Shown here: piece after piece, positions 9,974-41,400 of the stretch
Position numbering within the stretch: position 1 is the stretch's first letter
Layout: every line of letters starts with the position of its first letter
From: Haplosporangium gracile
Lineage: Eukaryota > Mortierellomycota > Mortierellomycetes > Mortierellales > Mortierellaceae
NCBI GenBank assembly: GCA_015499985.1
Contig: JAAAUF010000149.1
Location: 328-53,326 of the forward strand
Direction: 5' to 3'
DNA: 52,999 nucleotides
Position numbers and translations under genes: made by a program
Notes under the pieces: generated by a model
Told to the model about the DNA's origin: nothing
The model's input: the letters and a program-made list of their open reading frames with translations, nothing else
Databases searched by the model: none

Positions 9974-10314
9974 TGTTCGTTCTCGGTTTGAGTTGAATGA
10001 AGAGTTGGTGCGCTGTCGAAGTGGGGCAGGGGTGCTGTATGGAAAGAAGGGAGGAAGAAGGAAGGACAAGAGGCGATTCTGTCCGAGGGTGCCTGGTGCG
10101 TATTGCCGTTCGACCGAGTTCACACGGTGTGTTTGGACGCCACCAAAAAGGCAATTTTGTGACTGGAGTTTCTGCGCTTTTAGAGTTGATGCTCGATTGA
10201 CGCAACAGACGCCCAGTCCAGTTGCCTTTCTCCTCCACCCCTTTCAATCACGCTCATCTTCTCTCCCTCCCTCACTACTCCCACCACAATTTCTCAACAA
10301 CATAGTCCACGCAG
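9974..10314. promoter_or_regulatory. Shared divergent promoter, EF-G2 / XPG-family nuclease
   Basis: These 341 bp separate the two start codons on opposite strands. They contain GCCACCAAAAA at 10139-10149, a word that recurs in other promoters of this window, and a pyrimidine-rich stretch just before the plus-strand ATG (10225-10305), typical of fungal transcription start regions. The precise start sites cannot be read from sequence. Confidence 0.6.
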
Positions 10315-13044
10315 ATGGGTGTCAAGGGATTGACGGCCCTCCTCCAGCGACTGGCCCCCGACGCCGTCAGGACCCAGCATATCTCTCACTACAAAGGAAA
10401 ATCCCTCGCCATCGATGTCAGTTGCTTTCTCAACCGCTTCAGTAAGTCGTGCAGCCACTTAGACCTGAACATTATGCGTACTTTACAACTCACAAAATCT
10501 AACATGTACGCACGTTCCCACACAGTTTACACAGTAGACCCACACCCTGCACGCGTCCAACGCGGCCTGTACCGTCTCTGCATCTTCCTCCACCTACACG
10601 ACATCCGGCCCATCTTTGTCTTTGACGGACCCGATAGGATTATCGAGAAAGAGCAAGAAGGGATCCGAAGAGAGGCTATGAAGGAGAAAGTCAAGAAATC
10701 CTTTCAGCTAGAAAAGGTCCGAAAGGCACGACTCAAGGGGTTGAAGGGGTCGACGCAGATTTTACACGATTTCTCGTCAGAGGAGGTTGTTTCTATTCTG
10801 GAGGATATGCGGAAACAGGAAGGTGTTGGTGAGGGTAGTAGCGTTGGTGGTGGTGATTCCGGTGGTAGGCGTGCTCCGGTGACATCAGCAGCGTCTGCGA
10901 CTTCTGGCGTTAGCGAGGGTGGGGGCTCTGGTCGCCTGGATAAGGTCGCACCTGCAGTAACCGCGCCAGCAGAATCAACAACGACCTCATCAGATCCGGG
11001 AACTATGACAACAACACCAACGACACCAGCGCCATCAAAACTCTCAACAACCGTCACAACGCCAATAGAAAAGTCAACGAAGGACAACAACAACAAGGAG
11101 TTATTAGCTCCACAGCAAGAACTACATCTCGCAAAGATATACGATCTGCTAGAGGAGGATCCTATCTGGACGGACGAGGAATCCTCCTGGACTATACCCA
11201 CGCTTCCTGACGAATTCTACCGACGACTCGAGCAAGAACATAGCAAACTTTTGACATCATACGGTAGCGACCCCTACAATAACACCACTTCTGTCGTTGG
11301 ACAGGAAGATCAGCAACTTGCAGGGTTACTTGGCGGTACAGATGAGGGGGTATTTGAAGAGTTCGACACTTTTGAGCGGGAGCTGGATATGTTGGATCGT
11401 ATGGAACTGGATGTCGACACTCTTGGCGGAATGGATGTCATCTACGACCTCTCAGATCAGGCGACGGTACCTGTCGGTGACGAAGATGGTGCATGGCATT
11501 CACTACCGCTGGTACTCAAGACCGGAACCAGCATACAGAATCTCTTCTCGCCTTCTGATCATCCTCCTACCGCCCCTCCTGAGCCACCAAGTCCTGAGGA
11601 AGAGGCCGCCGCTATGAAAAAACGCGTCCAATCGGTACTAGAGGAGTATATTCGGTCGGCCGAGAAGGGTTCAGGTGAGGAAATGGAGGGTTTGGCTGCC
11701 GCTTCGACAAAGAAACAGCGAGTGTTGGATGAAATGGAGCAGAAACTGATTCAGGAGATCATGGAGTATGCTGGTATCGAGTCTCAAATGAATCCAGTCG
11801 CGGAAGTCGCAGAGACCACGACATGTGATTCAGATGTGACCTCTTTGTCACAGGAAATTTCGTCCGCAGAATTGGCACCAGCAAAGGAGGTCGAAGCGGC
11901 ACCAAAGGAGGCCGAGGCGGCACCAAAGGAGGAATACACAACAGCTTCGACAACAGGAATCGAGCAGTTGATCCCGGAGATGGTACCAACGAACGTCACA
12001 GAACCTGTTTGGTCTGTGGACTTTGATCCAAGCGAAACATCGGAAGCCCTGATACGGGACGACCTAGTACTCACGATGGAAGGCGCTGATCAAGAGACCG
12101 ACACAACAACACCGCCACCAACCGAAGTACCGGACCAGGACCTAAAATCAATGATCCACAGCGTCCTCTCGGCACACCGCCAAATCTTCTCAACCCTCGA
12201 ACGACGAACCCTACGTGTCACCCGTCCACTCGTCATATCCTGCCAACGACTCCTCGTCGCCATGGGCGAGCCCGTCGTCGAGGCAAAAAACGCAGAAGCA
12301 GAGTCCGTCTGTGCGCATTTGACGACTTTGGGGTTGACGGACGCGTCGGTGAGCGAGGATACGGATACGGCCGTGTTTGGGAACGGGTTGTTGTTGCGCC
12401 AGGTGGGGGCTACGGGAGATCGGGATATTATTGAGATTGATCCGGTTGTGGCGCGGGAGCAGCTTGGGTTGAGTAGAGATGCGTTCAGGGATTTGTGTAT
12501 CCTCTGCGGTACTGACTTTTCTGGTGTAAGCTTTTCTCATTGCCTTATCCTGTTGCAAACCTTTGGTTTTTTCAACGTCCTTGAGGCGCACTGGCTGACC
12601 TATTTAAAACCGATCATTTCTTCTGACTGATAGACAATGGAAGGAATTGGCCCAAAAAGGGCCGCAAAGCTGATCCAATACTACGGAAGCATCGAATCCG
12701 TCATGGCCAACAGCGGCTACAAGCCCCGGCCAGATTTCGTTTACGACCGCGCCCGTCGCGTGTTTGACCGGACGCCTACCGTGCCCCTCGATCCAGCAGT
12801 CTACAAACGCAAGCCCGAGGTCCAGCCATTGCTGCTCGAGCTGCTGTTGAAGTACGACATTAATCCCGAGGAGATCGAACAGGAACTGTTGAACGGACCC
12901 AAGACTGAGGAAGGGTCGGATGGTGTTGCTGCATTTGGACAAGACACAGACTCGCAGGGTTCAGGAGGAGCATTTGGCGGTAGGAGTGGTATGGGTATTG
13001 ATCCCTTCAAGGCGACAGTCATCAACATCCCCTCGCCACCGTAA
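10315..13044 (+). CDS. XPG/FEN1-family structure-specific nuclease with long acidic linker
   Basis: Model join(10315..10441, 10526..12525, 12634..13044), 845 aa. The N-terminal XPG domain starts MGVKGLTALLQ, with metal-binding Asp near residue 34 (AIDVS) and the FDG Asp near 76. The internal domain begins near residue 585 and keeps the acidic cluster (AEAE near 627-630, EDTD near 651, CGTDF near 704), followed by the helix-hairpin-helix GIGPKRAAKL. All seven acidic active-site positions known from FEN1 therefore appear present. Between the domains lies an acidic, Ser/Thr/Pro/Glu-rich linker of about 450 residues, as in XPG/Rad2 and unlike FEN1 or EXO1. No PIP box is visible at the C-terminus. 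The paralogue identity is unclear: the N-terminal sequence is not a close match to Rad2, EXO1 or FEN1. Intron 1 (84 nt) is in frame and has no stop. Intron 2 (108 nt) has an in-frame stop. Confidence 0.85.
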
Positions 13045-17060: not shown

Positions 17061-17217
17061 CGCGTTCGAAAATAAAAAAAAAGTTCCCATTTTTCTCATG
17101 GCTGATCAACGTACACGTGATATGGAGCTGGCAACCCCCTTTTTTTGACTTAGCGAGCTTTGCGCTCCGTGAAAGAATCATCATTTTTGTCATCACCAAT
17201 ACAAACTACGCAACCCC

Positions 17218-19614
17218 ATGTCGGCAACCATTGAGCACGAGGACAAGGTCAAGGAGCTGCTTCAAACTTTGAAAGTTGGGCAGGATGTACAAACTTCCCA
17301 CATCACCGACCTCACCACCGCATTCGTCGCCGCCGTCGCCAAAACTACAGACAACTCGACAGTCAGACAGCAGCAAAAGGACTACCTCAACTACTGCCAT
17401 ACCATCCTCTCAGAGCAACTGCCTACCGAGGACCCCACAGACGACTATACAAGTGCGCTTCATCAATTGCAGGGAGCTGTGCTCAAGTCTCTCCTCCGCC
17501 TTGTCATGAATGACGTCCCCTTTGTGGAAGCCTTAATTGACAGCGACGTTCTCGCTGACGTCCTCCGCTTGCCCAGCACCGTCGCCTCCCTCATCTCTAT
17601 AGTGGAGCCAAGCGTCAAGTCAGCATCAGCACCTACAGGCCCAAAGCCGACACGTCCTCAGGATCTCAAGCCCATGGCAGCCATTCTCCTCTCCAAATCA
17701 TTCGAAACCGCGTCAAACAAGGAGCACGTCAGGGACAAGAGCACCGAGATTATTTTGACCGATATCGGATCCGACAAAGTCAAGACGCGCGCTACAGGAT
17801 TCCAGTCTCTTCATCTGGTCTTCCAGGCAGATATGGCGATCGGCTGCGCCATACTGGCCAAGGAGGGCCTCTTGGTGGAACTCATGGACTGTATTGAGCT
17901 GGAACCCGAGGATATCCAGATCACGTTGACAGAGTCGCTTTCAATGGCCTGCGCGGATGCAAAGACAAGGACTGCGATTGGCCTTCACTGCTCCGAGTTT
18001 TTAAAGTCGATTGTGATGCGTGGCGTCACCAAGAACCAGCACTTGAAGGGAGCGGCGGCTGTTGCGTTGACGAAGATCTCGTTGTCAGAGTCAAGGAAGG
18101 ACCCATCTGTCGGCATGAACGGACTCGACGGCGCCTCAAAGCAAGCTCCATCAAATGGATCCAACAACTCGGCCGAGGAAGAAACTCAACTGGCGAAGCT
18201 TTTCTCGACATTGTTGAAGGACGACAAGAACGACAAGAACAACGGGATTCAACTCAATGCCGTCGAGGGTCTTGCCTACGCCAGTATTCAGGGACCAGTC
18301 AAGCAACTGATCATCTCCGACAAGGCTCTCCTCCTTTCCTTATTTCAGCTCGGCGAGGACACCAAAAACAACCCCCTTAAGTACGGTCTGATCATCATTT
18401 TCAACAACCTCACCGCCTTCCGTAAGCGCCTCAGTCCCGAACAGGAGCAGATGTTGAAGCTGAAGAAAATGGCAGGAACCCTCCCCAAGAGCGAATCAGG
18501 ACGCCTACAGAACCAGGACGACGACCCACTGGATGACGAGGCTGTGGTAAACCAGAGAAACATCACACTGACCAAGCTGGGCATCATACCTGCCCTTCAC
18601 GCCATTGGACACCAAGCCTCAGAGAACATTCGACAAAGTCTGGCTCAGGTCTTGAGGAACCTCATCACACCCCCAGAGACACGTGGGTTGTTAGTCCAAC
18701 AGGGCGTCGTCCGACTTTTGATGCCCATGGCTTTACAACAACAGCAACAACAGCAACAACAGCAGTCCCCAGCCTCCGAAGCGACCAAAACCGCAGCGAC
18801 TCAAGCTTTGGCCAAGCTGTCGATCACCCTCGATCCTCGCCTTACCTTCAAGAACCAGCGGATACCCGAGTTAGTCAAACCCCTGATCTGGCTGCTGGAA
18901 AGTACTGATCAGTTGTGTCAGTTCGAGAGTCTCATGGCCTTGACGAACCTCGGATCTATGGGCGATGTTCAGGTGCTCAGTCTTATTGTTCAGGATGGAG
19001 GAATCGAGAAGATGGAGAACCTTCAGTTCTCAGAGCACAACCTAGTTCGTCGCGCTGCCACGGAGGCACTCTGCAACATGATCTTTTTCGAGCCCGTCTT
19101 TGAACTGTATAGCGATCCCAAGCGAGGAAAGAACAAAATCCATCTGATGCTGGCGTTGTGTGATGCTGATGACTTTATGACACGGAGGGCGGCCTCAGGA
19201 GCATTGGCGGTGTTATCGACGAGCCCGGAGGTATGCAAGATGATCATTGCACAGACGCGTGGATTGGAGATCTTGAGGAGCCTTATCACCCTGGGTGTCT
19301 CTGGGTCCCAAACCGATGCAGATGAGGTGGAAGCCAAGGCGATTGAAGATGTGATGTCGGACCAGGAGGCTGTTGTGGTTGACCATGCGGTTGCAGTGGG
19401 CCGGATGGACGAGTTGCGACACCGAGGAGCAGAGTGCTTCAAGAATCTGATTACGATTGGTGGAAAGGATATCAGCGAAAAGATTGCAGCGGAGGGCGGT
19501 ATCCAGCAGCTTGCGCAGTTGATTCAGACGAGCCAGCACGAGGCTGTGCGGTACTGTGCTATGGAGGCACTGAAGGCCATGTCCGACCAGGGCATCCGTC
19601 TCCAGCAAAAATAA
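17218..19614 (+). CDS. UNC-45/She4/Rng3-type UCS-domain myosin chaperone
   Basis: Single exon, 798 aa. The protein is almost entirely armadillo-like helical repeats: a central domain followed by the C-terminal UCS domain, recognisable in segments such as KYGLIIIFNNLTAFRK, FESLMALTNLGS and VRRAATEALCNM. Family members fold and stabilise myosin motor domains, sometimes with Hsp90. There is no N-terminal TPR domain as in animal UNC-45. The first 100 residues are helical and unlike a TPR, so the architecture resembles fungal She4/Rng3. Two insertions interrupt the repeats: a polyglutamine run at 18736-18764 and a charged linker near 18450-18550. The ATG at 17218 is the first in frame and follows a T-rich leader. 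Unlike its neighbours it has no introns, and its coding strand is GC-rich. Confidence 0.88.
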   Translation: MSATIEHEDKVKELLQTLKVGQDVQTSHITDLTTAFVAAVAKTTDNSTVRQQQKDYLNYCHTILSEQLPTEDPTDDYTSALHQLQGAVLKSLLRLVMNDVPFVEALIDSDVLADVLRLPSTVASLISIVEPSVKSASAPTGPKPTRPQDLKPMAAILLSKSFETASNKEHVRDKSTEIILTDIGSDKVKTRATGFQSLHLVFQADMAIGCAILAKEGLLVELMDCIELEPEDIQITLTESLSMACADAKTRTAIGLHCSEFLKSIVMRGVTKNQHLKGAAAVALTKISLSESRKDPSVGMNGLDGASKQAPSNGSNNSAEEETQLAKLFSTLLKDDKNDKNNGIQLNAVEGLAYASIQGPVKQLIISDKALLLSLFQLGEDTKNNPLKYGLIIIFNNLTAFRKRLSPEQEQMLKLKKMAGTLPKSESGRLQNQDDDPLDDEAVVNQRNITLTKLGIIPALHAIGHQASENIRQSLAQVLRNLITPPETRGLLVQQGVVRLLMPMALQQQQQQQQQQSPASEATKTAATQALAKLSITLDPRLTFKNQRIPELVKPLIWLLESTDQLCQFESLMALTNLGSMGDVQVLSLIVQDGGIEKMENLQFSEHNLVRRAATEALCNMIFFEPVFELYSDPKRGKNKIHLMLALCDADDFMTRRAASGALAVLSTSPEVCKMIIAQTRGLEILRSLITLGVSGSQTDADEVEAKAIEDVMSDQEAVVVDHAVAVGRMDELRHRGAECFKNLITIGGKDISEKIAAEGGIQQLAQLIQTSQHEAVRYCAMEALKAMSDQGIRLQQK

Positions 19615-19863: not shown

Positions 19864-22398
19864 ATGGTTGACGCAGCACCAGCACCCAAGACCGGAGGCG
19901 GATCCTTCAAGGACAAGGACAAGCCCGTCGAGGTCAGACTCTCTAACATCATCGCCGCCAAGGGTAATACAAACCTCAAGAAAAAAATAACGCTTTCTCT
20001 TTCACATCCCTTTTTTTATATTTCGCGTTCATTGTGTGAGGGTTTCTTGTACCTGGCTGGCGGCTGGCAAATCAGAAAGAACACGAATGTCATCTCAACA
20101 GCGTATCAGGAATGCGCGGCTCGGACACCTCTTCGATGCACGCAGCCAACAGAAGCAACTAGAATGGAACACGACATCTCGAGCTGATCACACCAGATTT
20201 GACCATCGAACACGAGATCAGCGATGCTCTCTTTCAACGACCTCAACTTCTCTTCCAGGAACAACGCTTATCCAAACGACACCAACTCGAGAGATACTTT
20301 TCCCTTTCAATCTACTGCGCTTTGACGATCTGTTTATCCAACAACGTCTTCCTTCAGCAGTTATCCGGCTCTGCCCTCGACGCGCCGTCTTGCTGACAGT
20401 GACAGTCAGCACCGATTTCCTGAACACTGAACTGACACTGTGTTTATTCCTTACTCTTCGATCTATAGCTGTCAGTGATGCTGTCCGTACTTCTTTGGGT
20501 CCCAAGGGAATGGACAAGATGGTAAGAACGCGGCGACATGTCTGACACGACACTTTTGCGCTGCAACGTACAAACGACACAACACACAGATCAACTCACC
20601 GACTTTTTTATTCTGATCGACTGCCCTTAGATCAAGACTAGCAACGGCGAGGTTATCATCACTAACGATGGTGCCACCATCTTGAAGCACATGGCTGTTC
20701 TCCACCCCGCTGCCAAAATGGTAAGCCGTCAACACATTTCTATATGTCGACCAGAACTCACGGGGTAAACGACGGGGATACATAGAAGAAGGAGCATTCA
20801 CCAGCGATCACTTTGATTCTTTTTCCACATAGTTGGTCGATTTGTCGGCTGCTCAGGATGTTGAGGCTGGAGATGGTACTACCTCAGTCGTTGTTTTGGC
20901 AGGATCGTTGCTCGGAGCTGCCCAAAAGATGTTGAACAAGGGCATCCACCCCACCACCATTGCAGAATCCTTCCAGAAGGCTTCCCACAAGGCCAACGAG
21001 TTCTTGACCGAGGTCGCCACAAAGTTGGACCTTGCCGACCGCGAGTCTCTCCTTAAGAGTGCCAGCACCTCGCTCAACTCTAAGATTGTTTCACAGTACT
21101 CTGGATTGTTCGCTCCCATTGCTGTCGATGCTGTCTTGAGAGTCATTGAACCCGCCACTGCCATCAACGTCGATTTGAAGGATATCCGCATTGTGAAGAA
21201 GGTTGGAGGTACCATCGATGATACCGAGTTGGTTGACGGTCTTGTCCTCGCTCAGAATGTTGTCAAGTCTGCCGGTGGCCCCACCAGAATCGAGAAGGCC
21301 AAGATTGGTTTGATCCAGTTCCAGCTCTCTCCCCCTAAGCCCGACGTAAGTTTCTTGATCTTGTAAATTTGATGTCTCAAGGGCATTTGTCTGTTATATA
21401 TGAAATGATGGCTGAACATGCTATTTAATATTTGACTGTGTAATAGATGGAGAACCAGATTATTGTCAACGACTACCGTCAGATGGACAAGATTTTGAAG
21501 GAGGAGCGCCAGTACTTGCTCAACATGGTCAAGAAGATCAAGAAGTCAGGATGTAACGTTCTCTTGATCCAAAAGTCGATTCTCCGTGACGCTGTCAACG
21601 ACCTGTCGCTCCACTTTTTGGCAAAGTTGAAGATCATGGTTGTCAAGGATATTGAGCGTGACGAGATCGAATTCATCTGCAAGAGCACAGGATGCAAGCC
21701 CATTGCCGACATTGATTCATTCACAGAGGACAAGCTCGGATATGCCGATCTCATTGACGAGGTCCAGGCTTCGGGCTCGCGTGTCGTCAAGGTCACTGGA
21801 GTCAAGCATGCTGGGAAGACTGTCTCGATTCTCTGCCACGGAGCCAATTCGCTCGTTTTGGAGGAGGCCGAGAGATCTCTCCACGATGCCCTGTGTGTTA
21901 TCCGCTGCTTAGTCAAGAAGAAGTATTTGATTGCCGGAGGAGGAGCACCAGAGATTGAAGTTTCGTTGAGATTGCAGGAGTACGCCAAGGCATTGCGCGG
22001 TATGGAGGCTCACTGCTTCCAGGCTTTTGCTGAGGCCCTGGAGGTCATTCCCATTACCCTTGCCGAGAATGCTGGTTTGAACCCCATTGCAATTGTCACG
22101 GAATTGCGCAACCGCCACGCCCTCGGCGAGACCACCGCCGGTATCAACGTCCGCAAGGGAGCTATCACGAATATCTTAGACGAGAACGTCATCCAGCCCC
22201 TCTTGGTCTCCACGAGCGCCATCGAGCTGGCTGCCGAGACCGTCAAGATGTTGCTCAAGATCGACGATTTGGTACATTTTTGTTTATTGCTGTTGTTCTT
22301 GTTGACAGTGAATGTATGCAGCGATATGTAATGAGCGACTTTTTTTTCTAACCTGTCAATTTTTCATCATTTGTTTTTTTTAGGTCCAAACACGATAA
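19864..22398 (+). CDS. CCT4: T-complex protein 1 subunit delta (CCT4)
   Basis: Model join(19864..19963, 20469..20521, 20631..20720, 20833..21345, 21447..22271, 22384..22398), 531 aa, close to yeast Cct4 (528). This is one of eight subunits of the cytosolic TRiC/CCT chaperonin that folds actin and tubulin using ATP. Group II chaperonin motifs are present: LGPKGMDKM after exon 1, NDGATIL in exon 3, the nucleotide-binding GDGTTS near residues 94-99, and GGGAPE in the last third. Delta-specific segments are [30 protein letters not shown] and the C-terminal KIDDLVQTR. The last exon encodes only VQTR plus stop. Intron 1 is 505 nt, four to five times longer than the others. The gene is convergent with the next one, with 104 bp between stops. 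Confidence 0.96.
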
Positions 22399-25372: not shown

Positions 25373-27664
25373 ATGCACTCAAAAACGAAAATCCACAACC
25401 ATAATAGCATACCTCAGGATGAGGATGAGTCTGATGGCGAACAGGAGATCCTGCCAGACACTACGGTCGGAATTCTGCGTCGCATGGCAGAAGAGATCAA
25501 ATGTCCCATCTGGTGAGCGACCAAGGAATGCCAGTTCTTTTCAACCTTTATTTTCTCGTATTGGGTCTTATTGTATAGGAAACCTAAGAGACGTTGTGCC
25601 CGCACTTTCAAGTGAAAAAAATCATTGACGCGTCTCAAACTTCTATATGATAGCTTAGGAACGATGGAGAGACCCATGTCAACAGGCTGTAACCACACCT
25701 TCTGTCACGATTGCATCCTCCACGCGCTGAGCCGCAGTGATGGCTGTCCGCTTTGCAAGACACATATCCACAAGCGAGGGTTAAACAGAGTTGACCACCT
25801 TGAGCAGGTCATCGAAGCTTTTAACCAGCTCAAGGAGGCGTTTGAGCAAGAGGATGGCCACAGTAAGTTCTTTAGAAACCTCAGTCGGCTTTGGTTGCCA
25901 CCAAAAAATTGCTCTTCAGTTGACAGCTCCCTTACAAAAGCGAAAAAATTATTCTGTTCCTCTTGAACGCGACGTTCAATTGGCAGCATTGTCCCAGGCA
26001 TCTAGGCATTTCGAAACTGAGCCCCAGGAGAACTTGACACAGCTGTACCCATACCCTGAAAAGACGAGCGAGTCCTCTCCAAGTACATCATCCAAACCTG
26101 TCAATCCCTCTACTACCTCATCTATTACAAAAATCCCTACTACTACTGCTGCTGCAACGCGTTTTCCCACCGCGGAACCAGCACTTTCCTTCCGTCAGCC
26201 CTCACTTCGCATCCATGATTCCCCTTCCACACAGTCAACCTTGCCCGAACAAAGCCAGTATATTGAAGAAAGCGATGCGATGAGTGATATGGACTGCTTT
26301 GATGTGGATCTGGATAGTGTATCTGCAGATCAAGCGGCTCTTTTAGCCGAGAAGATGTTGGCCATGATGTTTCTTGGTCCTTCGAACGAGTCATCTACTC
26401 TGACTTCACGCCCCATTTCTTCTCGCAGAACTGATCATGTAGTGTCACAGAGTTGTTCGCCCACGCATACAGCTGTAAAGCAAGAGAGCAACGTTGACTA
26501 TGACGAAGATGAGCCTACACAACCACGGCAAGATCACATACAGGTTAAAGCGGAGGCACCATCGAGTATTGACTTGTACTTCAGTGGTGCTACTCAAGAG
26601 AGGGCGTCAAGCGAGGTCAATATAGTTATCTGTGGGACATATCTTGCATCACAGAAGAAGGTAAGGTTTTGCATAGCTTGCACAATTTCAAGTACTAGAA
26701 ACGTCACCTCTAACTCTGTTTTCGTTTCCCTATTTGTGTTCTAGACGCGGATGGACGGTGTGATCAAGAGCCTCAAAGGCAAGGCGATCAATGAGCTGAC
26801 GAGTAGGCCGACCCATATAGTCATGGATATAAGTAAGCCAAATGCTCACCTGCAGATGGCGCGGTGGTGTGTCATTTGGTTGTCGTAACTAATACAACGT
26901 CCTCTCGCCTCCTTCGTCCTCAGCACCCGAACAATGTCAGAAAGGGGGCGGCAGAACCGTCAAATTTTTCATGGGCATTCTTTACGGCTCCTGGGTTGTT
27001 CGATTTGATTGTAAGTCTCATTCATATCCTATGTTGCGCGCTGTTTGGGAAGGATGAGAGGTAGTGCTGACAATTTACAACAAATGCTTTGGTAGGGATT
27101 CTTGCGTCGCAAGAAGCAGGATACTGGGTGGACGAGACTTCATACCAGATTACCGACAATGAGATGAAATGCAATCCAGCAAAACTCTCCCGAGCCAGTC
27201 GCTCACGAGGGGTAAGTCCTGTAGGCGCTGTTTACTCTCATCTTTGTAGATTGCCCCTATCTTGTTCTAAAATAAGCTGTCCTGTACTCATTGTCAAACA
27301 CCATTAGGATCCTCCACTGTTTACAAACTATGAGTTTCAACTCATTGGTCCATTCGTGACACCGACAAGGGACGAAATGGAGCTGATGGTTAAGACTGGA
27401 GGCGGGACCACTGTTTCTAGGCTCTCACAGTGCGACCGATCTACCGCAATCAACGGCAGTGGTGACTTCACAAAACATGTGTTGTTGTACGATCAGACCA
27501 ATGATGGAGTGATGAGTCTCAAGAAACTCAAGGCGGACATAGGATCGATTCTGGCGCAGGGACGTTCGATTGGAAAAGAGGTTTCTATAGTTCCTTGTAA
27601 GACTCTGTTGGATTGCATTTCTCAGTATGATATGGACAAGATGGTTGAGACTGTTCCTTCGTGA
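25373..27664 (+). CDS. BRCA1/BARD1-like protein: RING finger plus tandem BRCT
   Basis: Model join(25373..25512, 25654..25862, 25927..26660, 26745..26832, 26924..27010, 27096..27211, 27308..27664), 576 aa. A C3HC4 RING lies at residues 44-81 (C44, C47, C59, H61, C64, C67, C78, C81), flanked by helices as in BRCA1. The middle (about 115-345) is Ser/Thr/Pro-rich and disordered, with a short coding polyT/A stretch. Two BRCT repeats fill about 350-576, with GILYGSWVVRFDW ending the first and GPFVTPTRDEMELMV opening the second. RTxK at 401-404 matches the phosphopeptide-contacting R1699/K1702 of human BRCA1. The equivalent of S1655 is Cys352. There are no ankyrin repeats, so it is not a full BARD1, yet BRCT2 (GGGTTVSRLS) resembles BARD1. 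Family role: E3 ubiquitin ligase in homologous recombination. S. cerevisiae and S. pombe lack it. I am sure of the architecture and less sure of BRCA1 versus BARD1. Confidence 0.88.
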
Positions 27665-29408: not shown

Positions 29409-32400
29409 ATGGCCGCACCTGCAGTAGTCAACTGCGAGGTCTTTGCGACACGACTCTCCGATCCAGCTTTGGGTAAGGCGACAGCAATATTTGTCAGGCG
29501 CAGAGCCATATGCATTTTACAATCCCACGATCAAAATGGTAGATTATGGACAGTTTATTGACACTCTCTTTCTATTGGCAACAGATGTGAAGCTGAAGGT
29601 TAAGATTGCCTCTGAGCTGAGGGACTCAGTGGAGATTTTTCAATCAGTGGAGTATGCGCGCTTCCTCTCGATCCTGATGCCAGTCTTTACAGATATCCTT
29701 ATGAACGGACAACCCGTCTTTGCTAGCAACGCCCCCGAGCAGGTATGGAGCAAAAACTCGCCACCTCTGTTTCCATCTTTCCGTGATGCAACAGAAATTT
29801 TAGTCGTTCTCTCTTACTCGTTTTCCAGTACGTTGCTAACATGTCATTACTCCATTCGTTGCTATAGAAACTGCGAAGCACAATTCTGGAGATCTTACAT
29901 CGGTTCCCTCATAACGACTCTTTCCGCGCATACGCCCCAGAACTTTTGAAGCTGTTGATGCATCTCCTCAGGGTGGAAAACGAGGACAACGCAGTGACAT
30001 GTTTAAAGACAATCATTGATCTGCATCGGTCGTACAAGCAGATTCTTGAGAGCCAAGTTCAACCATTCATCGACATTGTGCAGGAGATGTATCGCAACAT
30101 GGAACAGACCGTCAAGGATCAGTTCGACAACCCAGGAACCCCATTGGGCCAAACGGTATGAACCTTTTGCGACTGGGTACTGTCGTTTGCAAGACTACGT
30201 TTCTGTCTGTTTCTGAGCCAGTTTTTTAACCTATCGCCACTTTTGCTGGTTGTCATAGCCTGGTGGACCATCTGCCTTTACATCGCCTCGACCGGTGTCA
30301 CCGGCTTCAGAACTCTCTGACCAACCCTCGAAGATCCTTGCCAAGAGTTTGTTCAGTTTCAAAGTCTTGACAGAGTGTCCGATCATCGTGGTTCTTCTCT
30401 TCCAGACCCATCGCCAATTCGTCAACCCCAACATTGCCACATTCGTCCCCTTGATCATTCAGGTAACAAGGGGCTTTGTGATTATAATGACGTACTGATT
30501 TTGTGTGAGTTTGATAGCCAATCTGACCACTTTTAATATTATTTGAAATAATAGACGCTGGGCTTGCAAGCCAGTCAGCAAGCAGAGGCGCAAAGGTTGG
30601 CGAGCGCGCATGGCGAAGTGTTTGTGGGAGTCAGTCCGGCGATTCGCAACAGGACAGTATACACGGAGTTTATTGTGGCACAAGTCAAGGTAGGACGCAC
30701 CCCTTGGCATAATCCTAGTATTCTTGTAATAACACCAACTACGACTAAGCAACGGTCAACTAACACGACATATTCATTTTTTAGACAATGTCGTTTCTTG
30801 CATATATCCTTCGTGGATCAGCCAACGTATTACGGCCTCACCAGAATGCGATCCCAGACTTTGTGATTCGACTCTTGCGCGATTGTCCACCAGAAGCAGC
30901 AGCAACCCGAAAGGTACCGCTTCGCATCCTCTGCAGCTCAACTTCAGGCATTTTTCACAGGAAATGGAATACTAACGCCGCTTCTCACTCTTAACAATAG
31001 GAATTGCTCGTGGCAACGCGTCATATCTTGTCGATTGACTTTAGGCAGTCGTTCGTGCCAAAAATCGACATTTTGTTAAATGAGAAGGTTTTGGTCGGCA
31101 CCGGTGTTACATCTCACGAGACGCTTCGACCACTGGCTTACAGTATGCTTGCCGATCTGGTTCATCACGTCAGAGCTGAATTGACGCCAACACAGCTCGC
31201 CAAGACGGTATACATATATTCAAGGAACTTGCACGACCAGAGCCTCGCCTCTAGTATTCAGACTATGTGTGCCAAGCTTCTGTTGAACTTGGTCGATTGC
31301 ATTGTGCGCATCCCCAACGGCGAAGGTATAGTCCATATTCTGGACATATTTTGTTATGCCTCGACGGATCCTCTTTTCCCGACAGCATCTAATCAAGTTT
31401 TATGTTATAATTAATTAGGCAAGATTTTGTTGATCAAGATTTTGGACACCTTCACCAACAAGTTTGCGGCATTGAACTTGGCTTTCCCCGGCATCTTGAA
31501 GCAAGCGGAGCGGAAAAAGAACGGCGACGAGACGTCGGAGGATGACTTTGACTTTGAGAAAGCACGCTCGATTCACACTGCCTCAAGCTCAACAGATATC
31601 CCTGTGGATCCTGCTAAAGGTAATTTTTTTCTTTATTTGCATATGGTTTGACGCTCTGCCGTTTCGATTACTTATCTTCTGCACGATACTAACCTAGATT
31701 ATCTTGCATTATAGATGGGCGATTTTTGTTCAAGAACTTGGTGGCAGGACTGAAGACGATTCTTATCAATCTCAAGAACTTGAACGAACCCAATACTGCA
31801 GGAATGACGAACGCAGTCGCCCGGGACTATGTCCAAGAACAGTCCGAGATATTCACGCGTCTCTTTCAGGAGGGCTTGAAATGTTTCGACTACTACACGC
31901 TCGACGGCATCGACAACCCCACAGCTACACCAAAACCAGCAAACGACAAATCAAACCTGGATGCCACTCCAACAGGCCGACTCGGACCCACGTCAAAGGA
32001 GGAGAAGGAGACACTGGAGCATTTTGCTCTGGTGTTCACGATAGCCGACCCTGCCATCTTCCAGGAAGTGTTCACGTCGCAGATGGGCTTTTTGTTCGAC
32101 CAGACTCTCCTCAACATCTCGCTCCTGCAGATCCCGCAGTTCTTCCTCGCCAACGAGAACGTGTCCCAGAACTTTGCAGGAATCTTGTTCCGGTTCCTGG
32201 TGGATCGACTCGACAAACTCGGAGGCGAGGACCAGAACTACTCTTCGGTCATCCTTAGACTCTTCAAACTGGCGTTCATGGCTGTCACTCTCTTCCCTGA
32301 TGCCAACGAGATTGTACTCCAGCCTCATCTTGGCAACATCATCATGAACTCGATCAAACTTTCAACAAAGGCTAAGGAGCCCGTCAACTACTTTGTGCTT

Positions 32401-35400
32401 TTGCGCTCTCTGTTCAGGAGTATTGGTGGAGGCCGATTTGAGTTGCTCTACAACGAGGTCAAGCCGTTGCTTCAGGTGTTGCTCGAGGGACTCAACAGTC
32501 TTCTTGCTTTGGCCAACAAGCAGCATATGCGAGAGCTCTTCGTCGAGCTCTGTTTGACAGTGCCCGTTCGCCTTAGTGTATTGCTGCCCTACCTGAACTA
32601 CCTCATGAACCCTCTGGTATTAGCTCTCCAGGCAAGCCCAGAACTTGTGAGCCAAGGCCTCCGGACGCTGGAGCTTTGCATCGACAACCTAACACAGGAG
32701 TTCTTGGACCCCATCATGGCTCCTGTCATTACAGAATTGATGAACGCCCTCTGGAAGCACCTCAAGCCTCTTCCTTACAGCCCGGTTCACAGTCATGCCG
32801 CCATGAGAATTCTTGGCAAGCTCGGTGGCAGGAACCGCAGGATGCTCAAATACCCACCCAAGCTTCAGCATCATTCGCCTGCAGATGTTGGTGTCGATAT
32901 CAAGATCTACTTTGACCCAACACTGAAGCCTCACACTTTGCCTCTGGATTCTTCCTTGGCTCTCGCTGCTCAGACTTTGGAAGATCCCAACGCTAACATC
33001 TTTTACCGCGAGCATGCTTACAAGTTCCTCAAGGGCTGTGTTCCTCTCCTCATCGACACTTCGCTTGGACCTGAGAACCTGGATGAGCAGATCCAGACCC
33101 GTATCGCTATCTTTTCGCCACAGGAGGCAACGTCTCGACTCAGCATTGTCACCAACGCCATGGATGTCGACAAGGAGAGTGGCGACCTCGGAAAGTTTGA
33201 AAACAGGCGGCCCCAGGCACCCCGGTCACCTCCCTCCACCAAGAAGCTGGCTCAGGAGCGTGCGTTGAACCTTGTCCTGAGATCGCTCTTCATGGCGGCT
33301 TCAATCGATGAGCTCAAGGACGACGCATGGCCATTCCTTCAGGGTCTTATCCATCACTTTGCTCTCCTCCAGGTCGGTGAGGCTTTGGATTTCAAGGAGT
33401 CCAAGTCCCTCACCTTCGACGTACACCACATCAAGGGCCAGCTTCACTTGGACACCAACATCTTTGTGGACGCTGTTGTCGACATTATGACGTCGGAAAA
33501 CCTTCCCCTTCGCAAGTTGGCTGAGTCGGCCCTCCAGCTCCTGCACGAAACCTGCGTCACCGTCACTTCAAGCAAGGATGTCCTCTTTCAGCTTCCCGTG
33601 TTCCATTTGTTTGCGACGCGCTTCTCTTCCAGCTGTTATAAACAGGAATGGTTCCGCAAGAGCGGGGGTTGCTTTGGTATTTCAATCATGTGCTCACAGC
33701 TGGATATGGGCGCCAAATGGATGCTGGATCACGAACTTGAGTTTGTCAAAGCCCTGCTTTACATCCTTAAGGACATGTCGCCCGAACTTGCCACTGGAAA
33801 CGTTGAGGATGCTACGCAAACGTTGTCGCACGTCCTCAAGGTCTGCAACCGCCCCGAGGACAATGTCGAGTCGGCTGATCGCCAGGCCAAGTTTAACAAC
33901 CTGATCGGCCTCTTGATCTCCGAACTCTCCAACTCCAACAGCTCTGTGCGTGAGACGATCCAGTCCTCCTTCCAACTGCTCGCAGATTTGACTGGAAACG
34001 ACGTGACTGAGCTCCTTAAGCCTGTCCGTGAGCGACTCTTGTCACCCATCTTTGCCAAGCCCTTGCGAGCCCTTCCTTTTGCCATGCAGATCGGGCACAT
34101 TGATGCGATTACGTTTTGCTTGTCTCTCCGACCACCATTTTTGGACTTTAACGATGAGCTCGTCCGTCTCCTGCACGAAGCGTTGGCGTTGGCCGATGCA
34201 GAGGACCAAGCATTGGTTCCAAGGACTTCACAGTACAAGAACGCGTCTTCGCTCATCAACCTCCGCATTGTCTGTATTAAGCTGCTCTCCGCCGCAATGG
34301 CCTGCAACGACTTTTGCTCGCCCAAGCAGAGCACCACCCGCCAGCGCATCATCTCGGTCTTCTTTAAGTCTCTTTACAGCAAGTCTTCCGAGGTCGTTGA
34401 GGTTGCCAACAAGGGTTTGACGCAAGTGCTGGCGCAACAACACAAGCTGCCTCGCGATCTTCTTCAGGCTGGTCTTCGTCCTATTCTTATGAACCTTTCG
34501 GACTACAAGCGTCTCACTGTTGCCGGACTCGAGGGATTGGCACGTCTTTTGGAGCTCCTGACGAACTATTTCAAGGTCGAGATCGGAAAGAAGCTGCTGG
34601 ACCATCTGCGTCAGTGGGCCGAGCCGACGATGCTTCAAGAGTGTGCTGGCAAGCCATTGAGCGAGAACCAGGAAATTCGCATCATTGTTGGAATTCTAAA
34701 CGTTTTTTGCCTGCTACCCCAGGCTGCCAACGTGTTCCTGGATGAGTTGGTAACAGTGGTGCTTGACATGGAGGGACACCTTCGCCGCTCGATGTCCAGT
34801 CCCTTCAGACAGTCCCTTCTCAAATTCCTGAATCGTTACAGCGACGAGTCGGTCGATTACTTTTTGGATCGCCTCACCGAGGAACGCCACAGCCGCTTAT
34901 TTGTGGATCTCCTATCGACCGAGTTTGCAGCCCCCCTGCGCGCTGAGATTGTCAGGAACCCCGAGAAGCTGATCAAGAAGACGTTTGCAGATGCCGACGC
35001 CGCCGTCCAGTTCCACGGACTCACGATTACCCGCGCTATCTCCAAGTTCAACCCGGACTTTATCCCCACTAATCGATCTGTCCTCGACGCGCTTTTAACC
35101 ATGTGGCGTGCACCCGGCCGCTTGGAGCGTCTTCAGAGCGAGGATACATTGTCGTTGGCGAGACTTCGCGAGTCCCAGTACTTGGTCGAGGCATTCATTC
35201 TCTACCTTGGTCAGAACAAGGACGACGTCGAGGTCATTTTCGAAATGATCAGCATCTTTACTCAGGAGACGGTCATCGACTTCAGCTTCCTTAAGATGTT
35301 CTATATCGAGGAGATCGCTATCAAGGCGCCTGCCTCTAGGAAGAGAGCTATCCTGGAGCACTTCCTCACCATGTTCCAGGACAGGGCCATCCCCCAGGGT

Positions 35401-38400
35401 GTGAAGATGCAATCTCTCCGCGTGATCATCAACCCCATGCTCCTGGTCGCCTTCACCCGCGGACCCTCAGACTACCAGGCTGTGATCGACCACGCCATGA
35501 TCTCCGAGATCCACTCCAAGATCTGGCAGCCGCTGTTAAACGAGACCTCGGACGACAACCAGTACTCGGACGACGCTTTGAGGATTGAGCTGCTCCAGAT
35601 GACTTCGCTTATCCTCCAGTTCGCCTCAGACCTGATCGCCGATGCACGCAAGGACATCATCATCTTTGGTTGGAATTACCTCAAGATCGACGATATCACA
35701 GGAAAGCAGGCAGCCTACGTCCTGATTGCTCGATTCATTGCAGCCTATGACACTCCAAGCAAAATTATCATCCAGATCTACGTCGCCCTTCTGCGAGCCC
35801 ATCAATCAGAGGCCCGAGCCTTGGTCAAGCAGGCTCTCGACATTGTAGCTCCAGTTCTGCCAAAGCGCATTGTCATGACCGCCGATTCGCCCAAGAACCC
35901 AACTTGGGCACGTTGGACGCAGCGCGTCCTTGTAGAGGATGGCCACAGCGGATCCCAGCTGGTGAATGTTTACCAGCTCATTGTCCGTCACCCTGACCTT
36001 TTCTACGAGAGTCGCGAGCACTTTTTGCCCCAGATTGTCACGACTCTTTCTAAGCTGGGTCTGGTTCAGACAGCAGGAGTCGAGAGCAGGACTTTGACCA
36101 TCAACCTTGCCGAGCTGATTTTGAAGTGGGAGCGCCGCCGCATCGCGGAGCTTAAGACTGCCATGGATGTCGACACCCCGGATGCCCCGGCTGTGACAAC
36201 AACAGCCACCGCGGTCGGAGGATCCTACACTCCCAACCTTGGATTGCGTGAGAACGTGCTCAGCTTTTTGGTCCGATTCGCCTGCGCCTTCCCTGAGCCT
36301 TTGCAGAAGAAGGGATTACCCTATCGTGCAGCGGAGCTTTTGAAGGAGTTCTTGGGACCTGATTACTGGCCCGAGGTCAGCATCAAGCTGACGTTCTTTG
36401 AGCGCACACTGTTGCCCCCAGAGCTCACAGAGCTGAACCAAGTGGTCGCCTGCAATTCGTTGGATGTCCTCCTTATCCTTCTCAAGAACAGGCCCGGGCA
36501 CTGGTTCCTCGCCAACATTTCTCAGCTCTACCGCCTTTTGGACAAGTGTCTTCTTTCCGATAACCCAAGGATCGTCAACAGCCTTCAGCCCATCATCGAC
36601 CTGATCTACAAGCATATTTCCGCTTCAGTCGCCGCCTCGGCCACTCTTTCGTCCGATGTGACCTCGTTCATTGCTGCTGTCGATGCCATCATCACTGATG
36701 GACTTCACAACCTGACAAATCTCTTCTCGGTTCTCACGCTTATCCAGTCCTCCTGCCAGTACCGTCAGGACGCGATTGATGCCTTTGTTCCCGGTGTCAT
36801 GAAGGTTGTGAGCAAGTTGACTAAGGATCACGTTGCTCCCGCGCAGGCAGGCACTAGTCAACCAAGCGGGCCTGACTCGCCCAGCAACCTGCTCATCTTG
36901 GCTTTGAGACTCATCAAGTTGAGAATCTCTCATCTCGGTGACCAGCGCCGTTGGTACCTGACGTCGCTGATCCAGCTTATTGAAAAGTCCACAGATGTCG
37001 AGTTGTCGCGTGCTATTCTCGACATGGCGACTGAGTGGGTCACTGGCAAGACCGAGACTTTCCCGACGATCAAGGAAAAGGCCAGCTTGATGGTCAAGAT
37101 GATGTGTCTTGAGAGCCGTGGCGACAAGAAGCTGGTCGAAGATTTCTTGGAGCTGGTGGTCACCATCTACAACGACCCCAGCTTTGCGCGATCTGAGCTC
37201 ACTGTACGACTTGAGCAGGCGTTCTTGATGGGAACACGGAGCGATAATCCCAAGTTGAGAAACCAGTTTGCCGAGATTTTCGATCGCAGCATTGGTCGAT
37301 CCTTGTACACCCGACTGACGTACGTTATTGGTGGTCAGTCTTGGGAGTACCTCGGCGGCCAGTGCTGGCTCCAGCAAGCATTAGACATTTTGTTTGGCGT
37401 TGTGATCAAGTCGAGAGTCTTGTCGCTGTCTTCCGATGGCCTGCAGACCAAGCCGATTCAGCGTATTGGTGTTACGTTCGGTGAAAAGAAGGAGACAAGT
37501 GTAGTGGCGTCCTCGCTCGAGTTGACAGGCTTCTTGACGAAGCATCGCGAGTTCTTGGCCCAGATCAACCAGTTGAGCACCAATGATGTGATACTGCCAC
37601 TCAAGCAACTCCAGCATCTCGATACGACTGTCACCCACCGCCTCTGGACCGACCTTTTCCCTCTCTACTGGTCTGCCACCACGACCAAGGAGAAGCAAGA
37701 GTTGACCAAGATCCTGATCCCATTGCTCGCCAAGGAGTATCACAACAAGCAGATGGATGCCCGCCCCAATGTCATTCAGGCCCTCTTGGAAGGTATCTCG
37801 CGCTGCACGCCCGCCATCCGCCTCCCTCCTCACCTTGTCAAGTACCTCGGCAAGAAGTTTTGCGCCTGGCACATTGCGACCAACCTCCTCCAGAACTCTG
37901 TTCCCGATGGCAAGCCTAGTGATCTCGGCGGAGCCAAGGACGAGGAGAAGCTCCGCAACAGTACCTTGGACGCGCTTGCTGAACTTTATGTTACCCTTGG
38001 AGAGGACGACATGTTCTATGGACTTTGGAGACGTCGGTGTCTTTACTCTGAGACCAATGCCGCCATCTCATACGAACAGAACGGCATGTGGCAACAGGCG
38101 CAGATCATGTACGAGAGCGCTGTGAACAAGGCCAGGACCGGTGCGCTTCAGTTTACCGAGTCGGAATATTCGCTGTGGGAGGATCACTGGATTACCTGTA
38201 CTCAGAAGTTGCAGAGCTGGGACATCTTGACGGATCTTGCCAAGCACGAGAACAACACGGAGCTTCTGCTGGAATCGAACTGGCGCATGTCGGACTGGAC
38301 CGCTGACCGGGAGACTATGGAACAACTTGTGTACTCTATCACCGAGGCACCCACTCCCCGACGACGTGTCTTCGAGGCTTTCTTGGCCCTGATCAAGGCT

Positions 38401-41400
38401 AACCAGCCCCACACCCAGTCGACTGAGACCAATCCTGCCGAGTTTGTCAAGCTGTGTGACGAGGGTGTCCAGCTCTCACTCTGGAAATGGCATACCTTGC
38501 CCGAGATTGTTTCGCAGACTCACGTCCCTCTCTTGCAGGTCTTCCAGCAGTTTGTGGAGTTGACAGAAGCGAACCAGATTTACCAGAGTCTCGCCAACAC
38601 GACAGCTCTCAATCTCGAGTCCAAGTCTCAGGACCTCAAGAGTACGTTGCAGACCTGGAGAGAACGTTTGCCCAACACCTGGGACGACATCAATGTTTGG
38701 AGCGATCTCGTTGCCTGGCGTCAGCATATCTTCTCTGCCATCAACAAGACGTACCTCCCTTTGATCCACCAGTTGCCATCGGTCACCCCGGGAGCAGGAG
38801 GATCCAACTCAAACTCGTTTGCCTACCGCGGTTACCATGAGACTGCCTGGATTATCAACCGGTTCGCCCACGTTGCCAGGAAGCACCAGCTCTCGGAGGT
38901 GTGTATCAACCAGCTCACCAAGATCTATACCTTGCCCAACATTGAGATTCAGGAGGCGTTCTTGAAGCTGCGCGAGCAGGCCAAGTGTCATTTCCAGAAC
39001 GAAGCCGAGCTGACAACGGGATTGGAGGTCATCAACAACACCAACCTGATGTATTTCAGTCCCAACCAAAAAGCCGAGTTCTTCACGATGAAGGGAATGT
39101 TCCTCGCGAAATTGTCGCTTCACGACGAGGCGAACATGGCGTTTGTGAGTGCAGTCCAGATCGATCTGGGTCTTGCCAAGGCCTGGGCAGCATGGGGCAA
39201 CTACAACGACCAGCAGTTCAAGGAGAAGCCCAAGGAAATCACGCTGGCTAGTCACGCCGTCAGTTGTTATCTTCAGGCTGCCGGTATCTACAAGAACTCC
39301 AAGTCTCGCAAGTACCTTGTCCGCATTCAGTGGCTCATGACCCAGGACGACAGCCAAGGAACCGTCTACCGTGCCTTCGATGCTTTCAAGGGCGAGGTCC
39401 CTGTCTGGTACTGGATCACTTTCATTCCTCAACTGTTGGCTTCCTTGACGCATTTGAAGGAGGCCAAGCATGCTCGCCATATCCTCATGAAGATTGCCAA
39501 GACCTATCCTCAGGCATTGCACTTCTCCTTGCGTACCTTGAAGGAGGAGTACACGTCATTGAGAAAGGGGCAGCAAGTTCAACAACAAGCCCAGCAGCAA
39601 CAACAACAACCCTCTGCTCAACAGGGAACTCCTGGCCAGGCTGCAACTGGCTCTGCGGCCAACACGCCTGCGACACCCACCACATCTGCAGCATCCTCGG
39701 TCAGCACCCCTACGACCCAGGCGGCTCCAACGGCGACCACGCCGACGACTCAGCCTGCGTCCGCGGCAGAATCTAGCCCATCTGCTGCCGCTACTCCCGC
39801 TACCAATGTTGCTAATGGGCCTCAATCGCCCCAACCAGGAACTCCTAATGGAACTGCAGGGCAGCCAGCTCAACCCCAGACTCCGAAGGAACTGACGCCT
39901 CAGGGGCAGCAACCTACAGCTGGTCAGCCTGCGCAGCCTGCACAACAGGCTCAGCAGGCCCAGCAGCAAGCTCAACAACAGGCCCAGCAGCAGGCTCAGC
40001 AACAAGCCCAGCAGCAAGCCCAGCAACAACAGGCACAACAGCTGATTATGCAGGCTCAGAACCAGGTTCAGGCCACAGCACAGCTCCTCACTAAGTCTCA
40101 GGCGCAGCTTCAACTCCATGCCCAAGCTCTCACCCATGCTCAGGCGACATTGCAGGCGCTCGTTCAACAGTCACAGGCCCCTGGACAGCAGACGCCCGTC
40201 CAGGCGCAAGCGCAACAACAAGCTCAGGCCCAGGTTCAGGCACAGTTGCAGATCCACGCGCAGACCCAACAACAAGCGCAAAATCAAGCACAGGCCCATG
40301 CCTTGGCCCAAGCGCGACTTGCACAGATCACGGCCCAGTTCCCCGCCGCTGCTCTCAACACTCCCGGCGTTTCGCAGATTCGCAAGCCTTGGGAGCATGT
40401 GGACGATATCATGAACATTCTTAAGACAGCCTTCCCCCTCTTGGCTTTGTCTATGGAATCGATGGTAGACCAGATCCAGCAGCGCCTCAAGCCATCTCCC
40501 GAGGAAGATATGTACCGTCTCATCGTCGCCCTCTTGACCGACAGCTTCCAGGTACTATGTCGTCGCTTTTTTTTGGTTTGCGGCCTTGAATGTGCAATGG
40601 GTATGATGCGCAATGCATATGATGATAATTTGATAATTGACGTTGTCTCATCTTATTTTGTCCTGTATCTAGCAATTGTTCCAGAGGCTAATTCTCAGCA
40701 GCGAGAACGAGCAGCTGTCCGCTGTTACTGAGGCTAACTTGAACCGATTCTCGGAGAACTTGTTTCAGCCTCAGGTCAAAGCTGCGTTTGTGCACGACTT
40801 TATCACCAATAAGCCTACTCTCAGTCAGTTCGTGACGAGACTGCAGCGCTGGAGGGATAAGTTTGAGGACATTCTGGACAACAAGCCACGCCGTCAGCAG
40901 CTCGAGAACTGGAGCCACTACTTGGCCGAGTTCCAGCATCAAAAGTTTGACGACGTGGAGGTCCCTGGACAGTACCTGTTGTTGAAGGATAACAGCAATG
41001 ACTTTGTCAGGATCGACCGGTTCGAGTCAGAGGTCGAGTTGTTGCGTGGACCAGTCAACTGCAGCCGACGATTAACTATTCGTGGACATGACGGCAGCAT
41101 CCACCCCTTCATTGTGCAGCAGCCTGCTTCGCGTCAAGGACGCCGTGAAGAGCGCGTCATGCAGCTCTTTAGAATTCTTAACGGGTATGTTGCTTTTACA
41201 TGTTTGACAGCTGGCTCAATGTGTCTATTTGCATGTCATAGAGCTTGACTAACAACTTCAAAATGACAAATAGAATTTTGGAGAGAAAGAAGGAGAGTAG
41301 GAAGCGCAACTTGTTCTTCCATCTTCCGCTTATCATCCCATTGGCACCACAGATTCGCATCCTTCAGGATGATCCCTCGTACGCGTCGTTGCACAGCATC

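What the first reader, a model, noticed from the sequence alone, without database searches (positions are those of the whole stretch)
25373..27664. BRCA1/BARD1-like gene in a fungus
The deduced protein has a C3HC4 RING with BRCA1-like flanks and a tandem BRCT at the C-terminus, with RTxK at the phosphopeptide-reading position. The best-known yeasts lack BRCA1 and BARD1. The protein mixes traits: a BRCA1-like RING, a second BRCT closer to BARD1, no ankyrins, and Cys in place of the phosphate-binding Ser1655. It may represent an ancestral or single-subunit form, so whether a partner exists matters.
Basis: partly seen in the sequence, partly recalled or inferred. Interest (0 to 1): 0.8.

Follow-up and report, generated by a model that had tools for sequence, protein, structure and literature searches.

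The report
Fungal BRCA1 gene with BARD1 partner
This soil fungus carries a gene of the BRCA1 family, the human breast-cancer DNA-repair gene, and a second gene elsewhere in its genome looks like the usual partner BARD1, so the two-part repair machine that yeasts lack appears to survive in early-diverging fungi.

Summary
Window 25373-27664 (+) holds a seven-exon gene whose 556-aa product is identical to a Haplosporangium gracile database protein (Mortierellaceae): C3HC4 RING, long disordered middle, tandem BRCT. The RING is BRCA1-type by PDB search, controlled pairwise scores and residues. The BRCTs fit BRCA1 and BARD1 about equally, and better than Crb2 or 53BP1. Eleven organism names appear in both homolog lists. 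I conclude that this is the BRCA1 subunit of a BRCA1-BARD1-type E3 ligase; dimerisation and activity are inferred. BRCA1 homologs in early-diverging fungi are already in print; a 2014 survey implies BARD1 in some fungi without naming them in the text I saw. New details: a near-invariant motif just after the RING (35 of 39 fungal sequences, 0 of 14 animal BRCA1 scanned), and Cys for the BRCT phosphate-binding Ser in the BRCA1 subunit where the BARD1-like family has Thr-Gly.

The parts
25373..27664 (+). BRCA1-like gene, seven exons, 556 aa
   Evidence: Spliced product identical to P0001
25502..25756 (+). C3HC4 RING (residues 44-81), split by intron 1; flanking helices 31-41 and 94-114 in the AF2 model
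   Evidence: Pfam; PDB (human BRCA1 1.7e-14); AF2
26022..26063 (+). Conserved short motif PQENLTQLYPYPEK (residues 129-142), unstructured in the model
   Evidence: 35 of 39 fungal sequences; mean column entropy 0.64 bits against 1.11 for the RING block
26283..26369 (+). Conserved stretch in the linker with two predicted helices (residues 216-222 and 230-244; CFDVDLDSVSADQAALLAEKM)
   Evidence: AF2 (block means 74 and 80 for residues 221-240, 46 and 56 on either side)
26619..27637 (+). Tandem BRCT (residues about 328-548), across exons 3-7
25513..25653 (+). Intron 1, inside the RING
   Evidence: GTGAGC..TGATAG

Best explanation
The gene encodes the BRCA1 subunit of a BRCA1-BARD1-type heterodimeric E3 ubiquitin ligase of a Mortierellaceae fungus. 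Shown here: its RING is BRCA1-type by sequence and keeps the E2-side Ile and the basic residues after the last zinc pair; the model gives it two flanking helices; a second gene on C381 encodes a BARD1-type RING-tandem-BRCT protein. Inferred: the two RINGs pair through flanking helices, the window subunit binds the E2 and anchors on the nucleosome acidic patch, the pair ubiquitylates histone H2A, and the BRCTs and the post-RING motif dock it at DNA damage to favour homologous recombination.
For: RING alone against the PDB: the four best are human BRCA1 (1.7e-14 to 1.2e-13); no BARD1 chain among the 48 at 1e-5. C381 protein: human BARD1 RING 9.2e-10, no BRCA1 RING among the 60 rows shown of 89. 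Local scores against shuffles that keep Cys and His: window to dog and fish BRCA1 z 12.9 and 10.9, to human BARD1 6.9; C381 to human BARD1 z 9.5, to fish and dog BRCA1 7.2 and 3.9. RING tree: one branch, 96/85, sets vertebrate BARD1 plus four fungal BARD1-like rows apart from the BRCA1 rows. Letters between the second and third zinc Cys: 11, with Ile before the second Cys, in all 28 of 39 fungal BRCA1-like rows that match the RING pattern (11 do not match); 12 in all six of 24 BARD1-like rows that match. In A3 (26 rows) the position of Ile26 is Ile in 22, gap 4; Lys65 is Lys in 22, Asn 2, Gly 1, gap 1; Lys70 is Lys 23, Arg 2, gap 1; Arg71 is Arg 25, gap 1 (human numbers and roles recalled). 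A mixed profile search, limited to 7994 candidates, finds fungal rows, then vertebrate BRCA1 (7e-45 on), long before the next family (LONRF, 7e-16). The genome also has a BRCA2 OB1 match (8.6e-35) and a Sae2/CtIP match (1.2e-9).
Against: No experiment on dimerisation, E3 activity or repair. BRCA1 rows are not a well-supported clade of their own in the RING tree (61/58 fork that also holds CHFR, LONRF and two own-genome RINGs; one clade not rejected, p-AU 0.378), a clade of fungal BRCA1-like plus vertebrate BARD1 is not rejected either (p-AU 0.316), the weevil row joins Topors, and the own-genome RING C635 stands next to the BARD1 rows at 92/92. Window RING to LONRF scores z 7.3, above BARD1, and a RING2-BMI1 chimera comes close to BRCA1 (1.4e-13). 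BRCT1 alone matches microcephalin best (3.7e-7), then BARD1 (1.2e-6), then BRCA1 (1.2e-5). The BRCT tree is unresolved; holding the BRCA1 rows together costs 10.8 log units, p-AU 0.078. Foldseek by E-value puts BARD1 BRCTs first. No animal BARD1 is among the 46 rows of the mixed profile search. No PALB2 WD40 match, in a search that rang in no control genome. The AF2 model of the BARD1-like relative P0038 is poor (pLDDT 38), so its RING helices are unproven.
Confidence: 0.84

Rival explanations
1. A single-subunit RING-BRCT protein that does the work of both BRCA1 and BARD1.
Against: A separate BARD1-type gene on C381 with a complementary RING; 11 organism names in both homolog lists.
Confidence: 0.04
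2. The window gene is the BARD1 ortholog, as the database name says, and C381 is something else.
For: Names; Foldseek ranks BARD1 BRCT first; BRCT1 alone scores BARD1 above BRCA1.
Against: RING identity, spacing and E2-side residues are BRCA1-type, while C381 has the BARD1-type RING.
Confidence: 0.05
3. A lineage-specific RING-BRCT ligase that fused a generic RING to an MCPH1/MDC1-type tandem BRCT independently of BRCA1.
For: BRCT1 alone best matches microcephalin; RING trees are short and weak.
Confidence: 0.07

Closest known systems
Animal BRCA1
   Same: N-terminal C3HC4 RING with flanking helices, Ile and basic residues on the E2 and nucleosome side, long disordered middle, C-terminal tandem BRCT with R-T-x-K
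   Different: 556 aa instead of over 1800 in human (recalled); Cys, not Ser, at the BRCT phosphate position; a fungal post-RING motif; no BRCA1 serine-rich Pfam domain among the matches; no PALB2 found, without a control
Animal BARD1
   Same: Tandem BRCT of similar fold; C381, not the window gene, has the BARD1-type RING
   Different: Window RING is BRCA1-type; C381 has no Pfam ankyrin match and, like 13 of 24 relatives scanned, a W-C-C...C-C zinc-knot-like stretch
'BRCA1' of early-diverging fungi in PMC11061109 and 'Brca1' of Mucorales in PMC12818731
   Same: Published as BRCA1 homologs; PMC11061109 reports expression in L. transversale (Mortierellomycotina)
   Different: Neither main text holds the word BARD1; I did not compare their sequences with the window protein
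Crb2, Brc1, Mdb1, Rtt107 of yeasts
   Same: Tandem BRCTs in DNA-damage signalling (recalled)

Membership tests
BRCA1 | N-terminal C3HC4 RING of BRCA1 type with flanking helices | tested here: met
BRCA1 | C-terminal tandem BRCT of the BRCA1/BARD1 fold | tested here: met
BRCA1 | Phosphoserine pocket Ser1655-Gly1656 and Lys1702 (recalled) | tested here: inconclusive
   Lys in 21 of 26 rows, gap 5; the Ser position is Cys in 18, Thr 3, Ala 1, gap 4; binding not testable here
BRCA1 | A BARD1-type partner in the same genome | tested here: met
   C381 gene
BRCA1 | RING heterodimer and E3 activity | not testable with these tools
   Needs biochemistry
BRCA1 | Coiled coil binding PALB2 | tested here: inconclusive
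   Short predicted helices in the middle; no PALB2 match, and that search rang in no control genome
BRCA1 | Phylogenetic placement with animal BRCA1 | tested here: inconclusive
   One RING branch sets BARD1 rows apart (96/85) but the BRCA1 clade itself is weak; BRCT unresolved
BARD1 | BARD1-type RING (window protein) | tested here: not met
   No BARD1 chain among the 48 at 1e-5; BRCA1-type spacing
BARD1 | Ankyrin repeats before the BRCTs | tested here: not met
   No ankyrin Pfam match in the window protein or in the C381 protein
Rad18 | RING grouping with Rad18 | tested here: inconclusive
   In one search the window RING does not group with C635, Rad18-like by eye only; no named Rad18 row was in the tree
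Crb2/53BP1 | Tandem BRCT of Crb2 type | tested here: inconclusive

The most novel reading that the evidence does not exclude
Early-diverging fungi keep a complete BRCA1-BARD1 ligase that reads chromatin differently from the animal one: the BARD1 subunit has no ankyrin H4K20 reader, phosphopeptide reading has moved to its BRCT (Thr-Gly and Lys), the BRCA1 subunit's own phosphate pocket is altered (Ser to Cys), and a fungal motif (NL[TS]Q-x-[YF]PYP) right after the RING recruits an unknown partner in place of PALB2.
Probability: 0.25. Interest if true: 0.72.

Novelty: new member of a known kind. Interest (0 to 1): 0.48.

Why it matters
BRCA1 has been described as missing from fungi: a 2021 paper states that databases hold no fungal BRCA1 (PMC8483008, passages read). 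[quoted passage not shown] The near-invariant motif gives a direct handle on an unknown interaction.

Tried and rejected
Single-subunit reading: rejected after finding C381. Other RINGs of the genome as partner: I printed open frames for 11 of the 67 RING matches besides the window's own. By eye and from memory, C302 looks TRAF-like with WD40, C718 and C950 Bre1-like, C464 and C70 SNF2/Rad5-like, C289 LONRF-like, C1040 Vps-like, C635 Rad18-like, the C381 frame at 37.8 kb CHFR-like; C110 and C596 I did not name. None was Pfam-tested. Cross of 67 RING matches and 15 BRCT matches: contigs with both are C240, C381 and C407; on C407 they are 22 kb apart on opposite strands. This cross cannot exclude a third gene: the BARD1-like RING itself, split by introns, was not among the matches.

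C309 was considered as BARD1 and looks like a different tandem-BRCT protein (by eye); it served only as an outgroup row, made of two exon frames put together.

The BRCT tree and single-BRCT searches did not decide BRCA1 against BARD1. AF2 of the BARD1-like relative P0038 gave pLDDT 38 and was not searched further.

Literature: ten text searches. Seen: PMC11061109 (abstract, section 5, second half of section 4, passages), PMC12818731, PMC8483008, PMC3969565, PMC10639053, PMC9779921, PMC10553808 (passages only). [quoted passage not shown] the figure naming them is not held. Searches were loose (408 and 538 papers, ten listed each, none of these naming BARD1). So I cannot say that fungal BARD1 is not in print, only that I saw no description of one. 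On rechecking I lowered overall interest from 0.50 to 0.48 for this reason.

Full report
What is there. The window (contig C240 of a 37.5-Mb, 1157-contig genome) holds at 25373-27664 (+) a seven-exon gene. Its spliced 556-aa product is identical to P0001, a Haplosporangium gracile record (Mortierellaceae). P0037, the H. gracile record for the partner gene, comes from a contig of 43,076 bases, the length of C381; the contig given for P0001 (57,545) differs from C240 (53,326), which I leave unexplained. My first gene model kept 20 extra residues at the start of exon 3; the 12 relatives aligned lack them and a downstream acceptor removes them.

Family. The first database search gave 36 proteins: P0001-P0035, from Mortierellaceae-type fungi, one unnamed record (P0028) and Basidiobolus, and P0036, an unnamed ankyrin-BRCT protein (7990 candidates scored). 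They are named, apparently automatically, now BARD1, now 'Breast cancer 1', now hypothetical. A profile made from five BRCA1-like and five BARD1-like fungal rows found Umbelopsis, Dimargaris and a second Basidiobolus, then vertebrate BRCA1 (7e-45 on), and at 7e-16 the next family, LONRF; no animal BARD1 is among its 46 rows. So BRCA1-like genes occur in Mortierellomycota, Mucoromycota, Kickxellomycota and Basidiobolomycota.

RING. Alone against the PDB its four best matches are human BRCA1 (1.7e-14 to 1.2e-13); a RING2-BMI1 chimera follows (1.4e-13), then TRIM proteins; no BARD1 chain is among the 48 at 1e-5, and in the whole-protein search the BARD1 RING scored only 0.02 on its own. With shuffles that keep every Cys and His in place, the window RING scores z 12.9 and 10.9 with dog and fish BRCA1, 7.3 with LONRF, 6.9 with human BARD1, 6.2 or less with three others. 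In the 26-row alignment A3 the residues that in human BRCA1 contact the E2 and the nucleosome (Ile26, Lys65, Lys70, Arg71; recalled) are kept: Ile in 22, gap 4; Lys in 22, Asn 2, Gly 1, gap 1; Lys 23, Arg 2, gap 1; Arg 25, gap 1. AlphaFold2 models the RING and its two flanking helices with block means of 82-96.

Partner. A search of the same genome with the Basidiobolus protein (later also Pfam BRCT) pointed to C381. There, six exons (C381:33081-33139, 33297-33353, 33473-33618, 33725-34260, 34365-35495, 35617-36246, +) give an 852-aa protein with a C3HC4 RING, no Pfam ankyrin and a tandem BRCT (Pfam BRCT matches are weak, 0.006 and 0.0049). Its RING matches human BARD1 (9.2e-10; no BRCA1 RING among the 60 rows shown of 89) and scores z 9.5 with human BARD1, against 7.2 and 3.9 with fish and dog BRCA1 and 6.6 or less with the other four. 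It has 12 residues between the second and third zinc Cys, as in the six of 24 relatives that match the RING pattern and as in BARD1; the 28 of 39 fungal BRCA1-like rows that match have 11. Rows that do not match are mostly models without an intact RING. The H. gracile record P0037 lacks the first RING exons; P0038, P0039 and others have them. By name, 26 organisms are in my BRCA1-like list and 20 in the BARD1-like list; 11 are in both (typed). For three of the 11 (H. gracile with my C381 model, Linnemannia elongata, L. zychae) both sides have an intact RING; records of one name may be different strains.

Trees. RING tree, 27 rows: one branch (96/85) sets the six BARD1 rows (two vertebrate, four fungal) apart from the BRCA1 rows. 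The BRCA1 side is weak (61/58) and holds other RINGs too, the weevil row joins Topors by long branches, C635 of this genome stands next to the BARD1 rows (92/92), and neither one BRCA1 clade (p-AU 0.378) nor a grouping of fungal BRCA1-like with vertebrate BARD1 (p-AU 0.316) is rejected. Tandem BRCT tree, 21 rows: no resolution between BRCA1 and BARD1; one BRCA1 clade p-AU 0.078, one BARD1 clade 0.224; the only vertebrate BARD1 row was cut in the second BRCT. The orthology claim therefore rests on the RINGs, on architecture and on the presence of a complementary pair.

New details. Right after the RING helices, in a stretch that the model leaves unstructured, lies P-x2-NL[TS]Q-x-[YF]PYP-x-K. 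It is in 35 of 39 fungal sequences scanned (the expression allows 1-3 letters after P and His for Asn) and in none of 14 animal proteins scanned, 13 vertebrate BRCA1 and one weevil. Its mean column entropy is 0.64 bits, against 1.11 for the RING block, 1.48 and 1.64 for the BRCTs and 2.3 to 2.6 for the linkers; of all 14-column windows one, at the RING's first helix and zinc pair, is lower (0.58) and one equal. It is probably a docking peptide (inference). BARD1-like rows share W[TS][YF]DCGPT[FL] in 17 of 24 (of the seven without it five are short models of 517-617 aa), and 13 of 24 have a W-x-C-x2-C...C-x2-C stretch.

Pathway. The genome has a BRCA2 OB1 match (8.6e-35, C1065) and a Sae2/CtIP match (1.2e-9, C1). 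No PALB2 WD40 match, in a search without a positive control.

Mechanism. In animals the BARD1 ankyrins and BRCTs read H4K20me0 and H2AK15ub while the RINGs form a separate nucleosome module (PMC10639053, passages). The fungal pair keeps the RING module and the BRCTs but not the ankyrins. I infer a heterodimeric ligase that ubiquitylates H2A near breaks and steers repair toward recombination, with targeting by BRCTs and the new motif rather than by ankyrins.

Prior knowledge. [quoted passage not shown] its set held five fungi, and its figure is not held). A 2021 paper says no fungal BRCA1 is in the databases (PMC8483008, passages). A 2024 paper reports BRCA1 homologs in early-diverging fungi, with expression in L. 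transversale, and its main text does not hold the word BARD1 (PMC11061109). A 2026 paper disrupted a 'brca1' gene (KOG4362) in Mucorales; its main text holds neither RING nor BARD1 as a word (PMC12818731, passages); whether that is the same ortholog I did not test. The gene itself is thus a new member of a known kind. I saw no description of a fungal BARD1, of its missing ankyrins or of the motif, within ten searches, two of them loose.

Noticed in passing
G000:C381:33081-36246 (+), locus L034: BARD1-type partner gene; the H. gracile database model P0037 misses its first RING exons, so the RING is not annotated.
   Followed up: yes
window 26022-26063: Near-invariant post-RING motif of fungal BRCA1-like proteins, absent from the 14 animal proteins scanned; function unknown.
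   Followed up: partly
P0037-P0047, P0058, P0059 (BARD1-like middle region): W-x-C-x2-C...C-x2-C zinc-knot-like stretch in 13 of 24 BARD1-like proteins, which have no ankyrins where checked; two short strands at this place in an otherwise poor AF2 model.
   Followed up: partly
window 31693-40728 (+): A single open frame of 3012 aa matching Tra1 (HEAT ring, FAT); DMAP1-like and SANT frames at 46970-48854 (-) would encode another subunit of the same kind of acetyltransferase complex (complex membership recalled).
   Followed up: partly
window 10306-12627 (+): Frame with XPG N-terminal and I-region domains (nuclease of the XPG/Rad2 kind), another likely DNA-repair gene 13 kb from the BRCA1-like gene.
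   Followed up: no
window 7058-9463 (-), 17173-19611 (+), 21447-22328 (+): Frames matching an elongation-factor-G-like GTPase, an UNC45-like ARM protein and a Cpn60/TCP-1 chaperonin.
   Followed up: no
P0036: An unnamed ankyrin plus BRCT protein resembling the C-terminal half of BARD1; origin unknown.
   Followed up: no
G000:C381:37796-37894 (-): A RING frame on the opposite strand just downstream of the BARD1-like gene, CHFR-like by eye.
   Followed up: no
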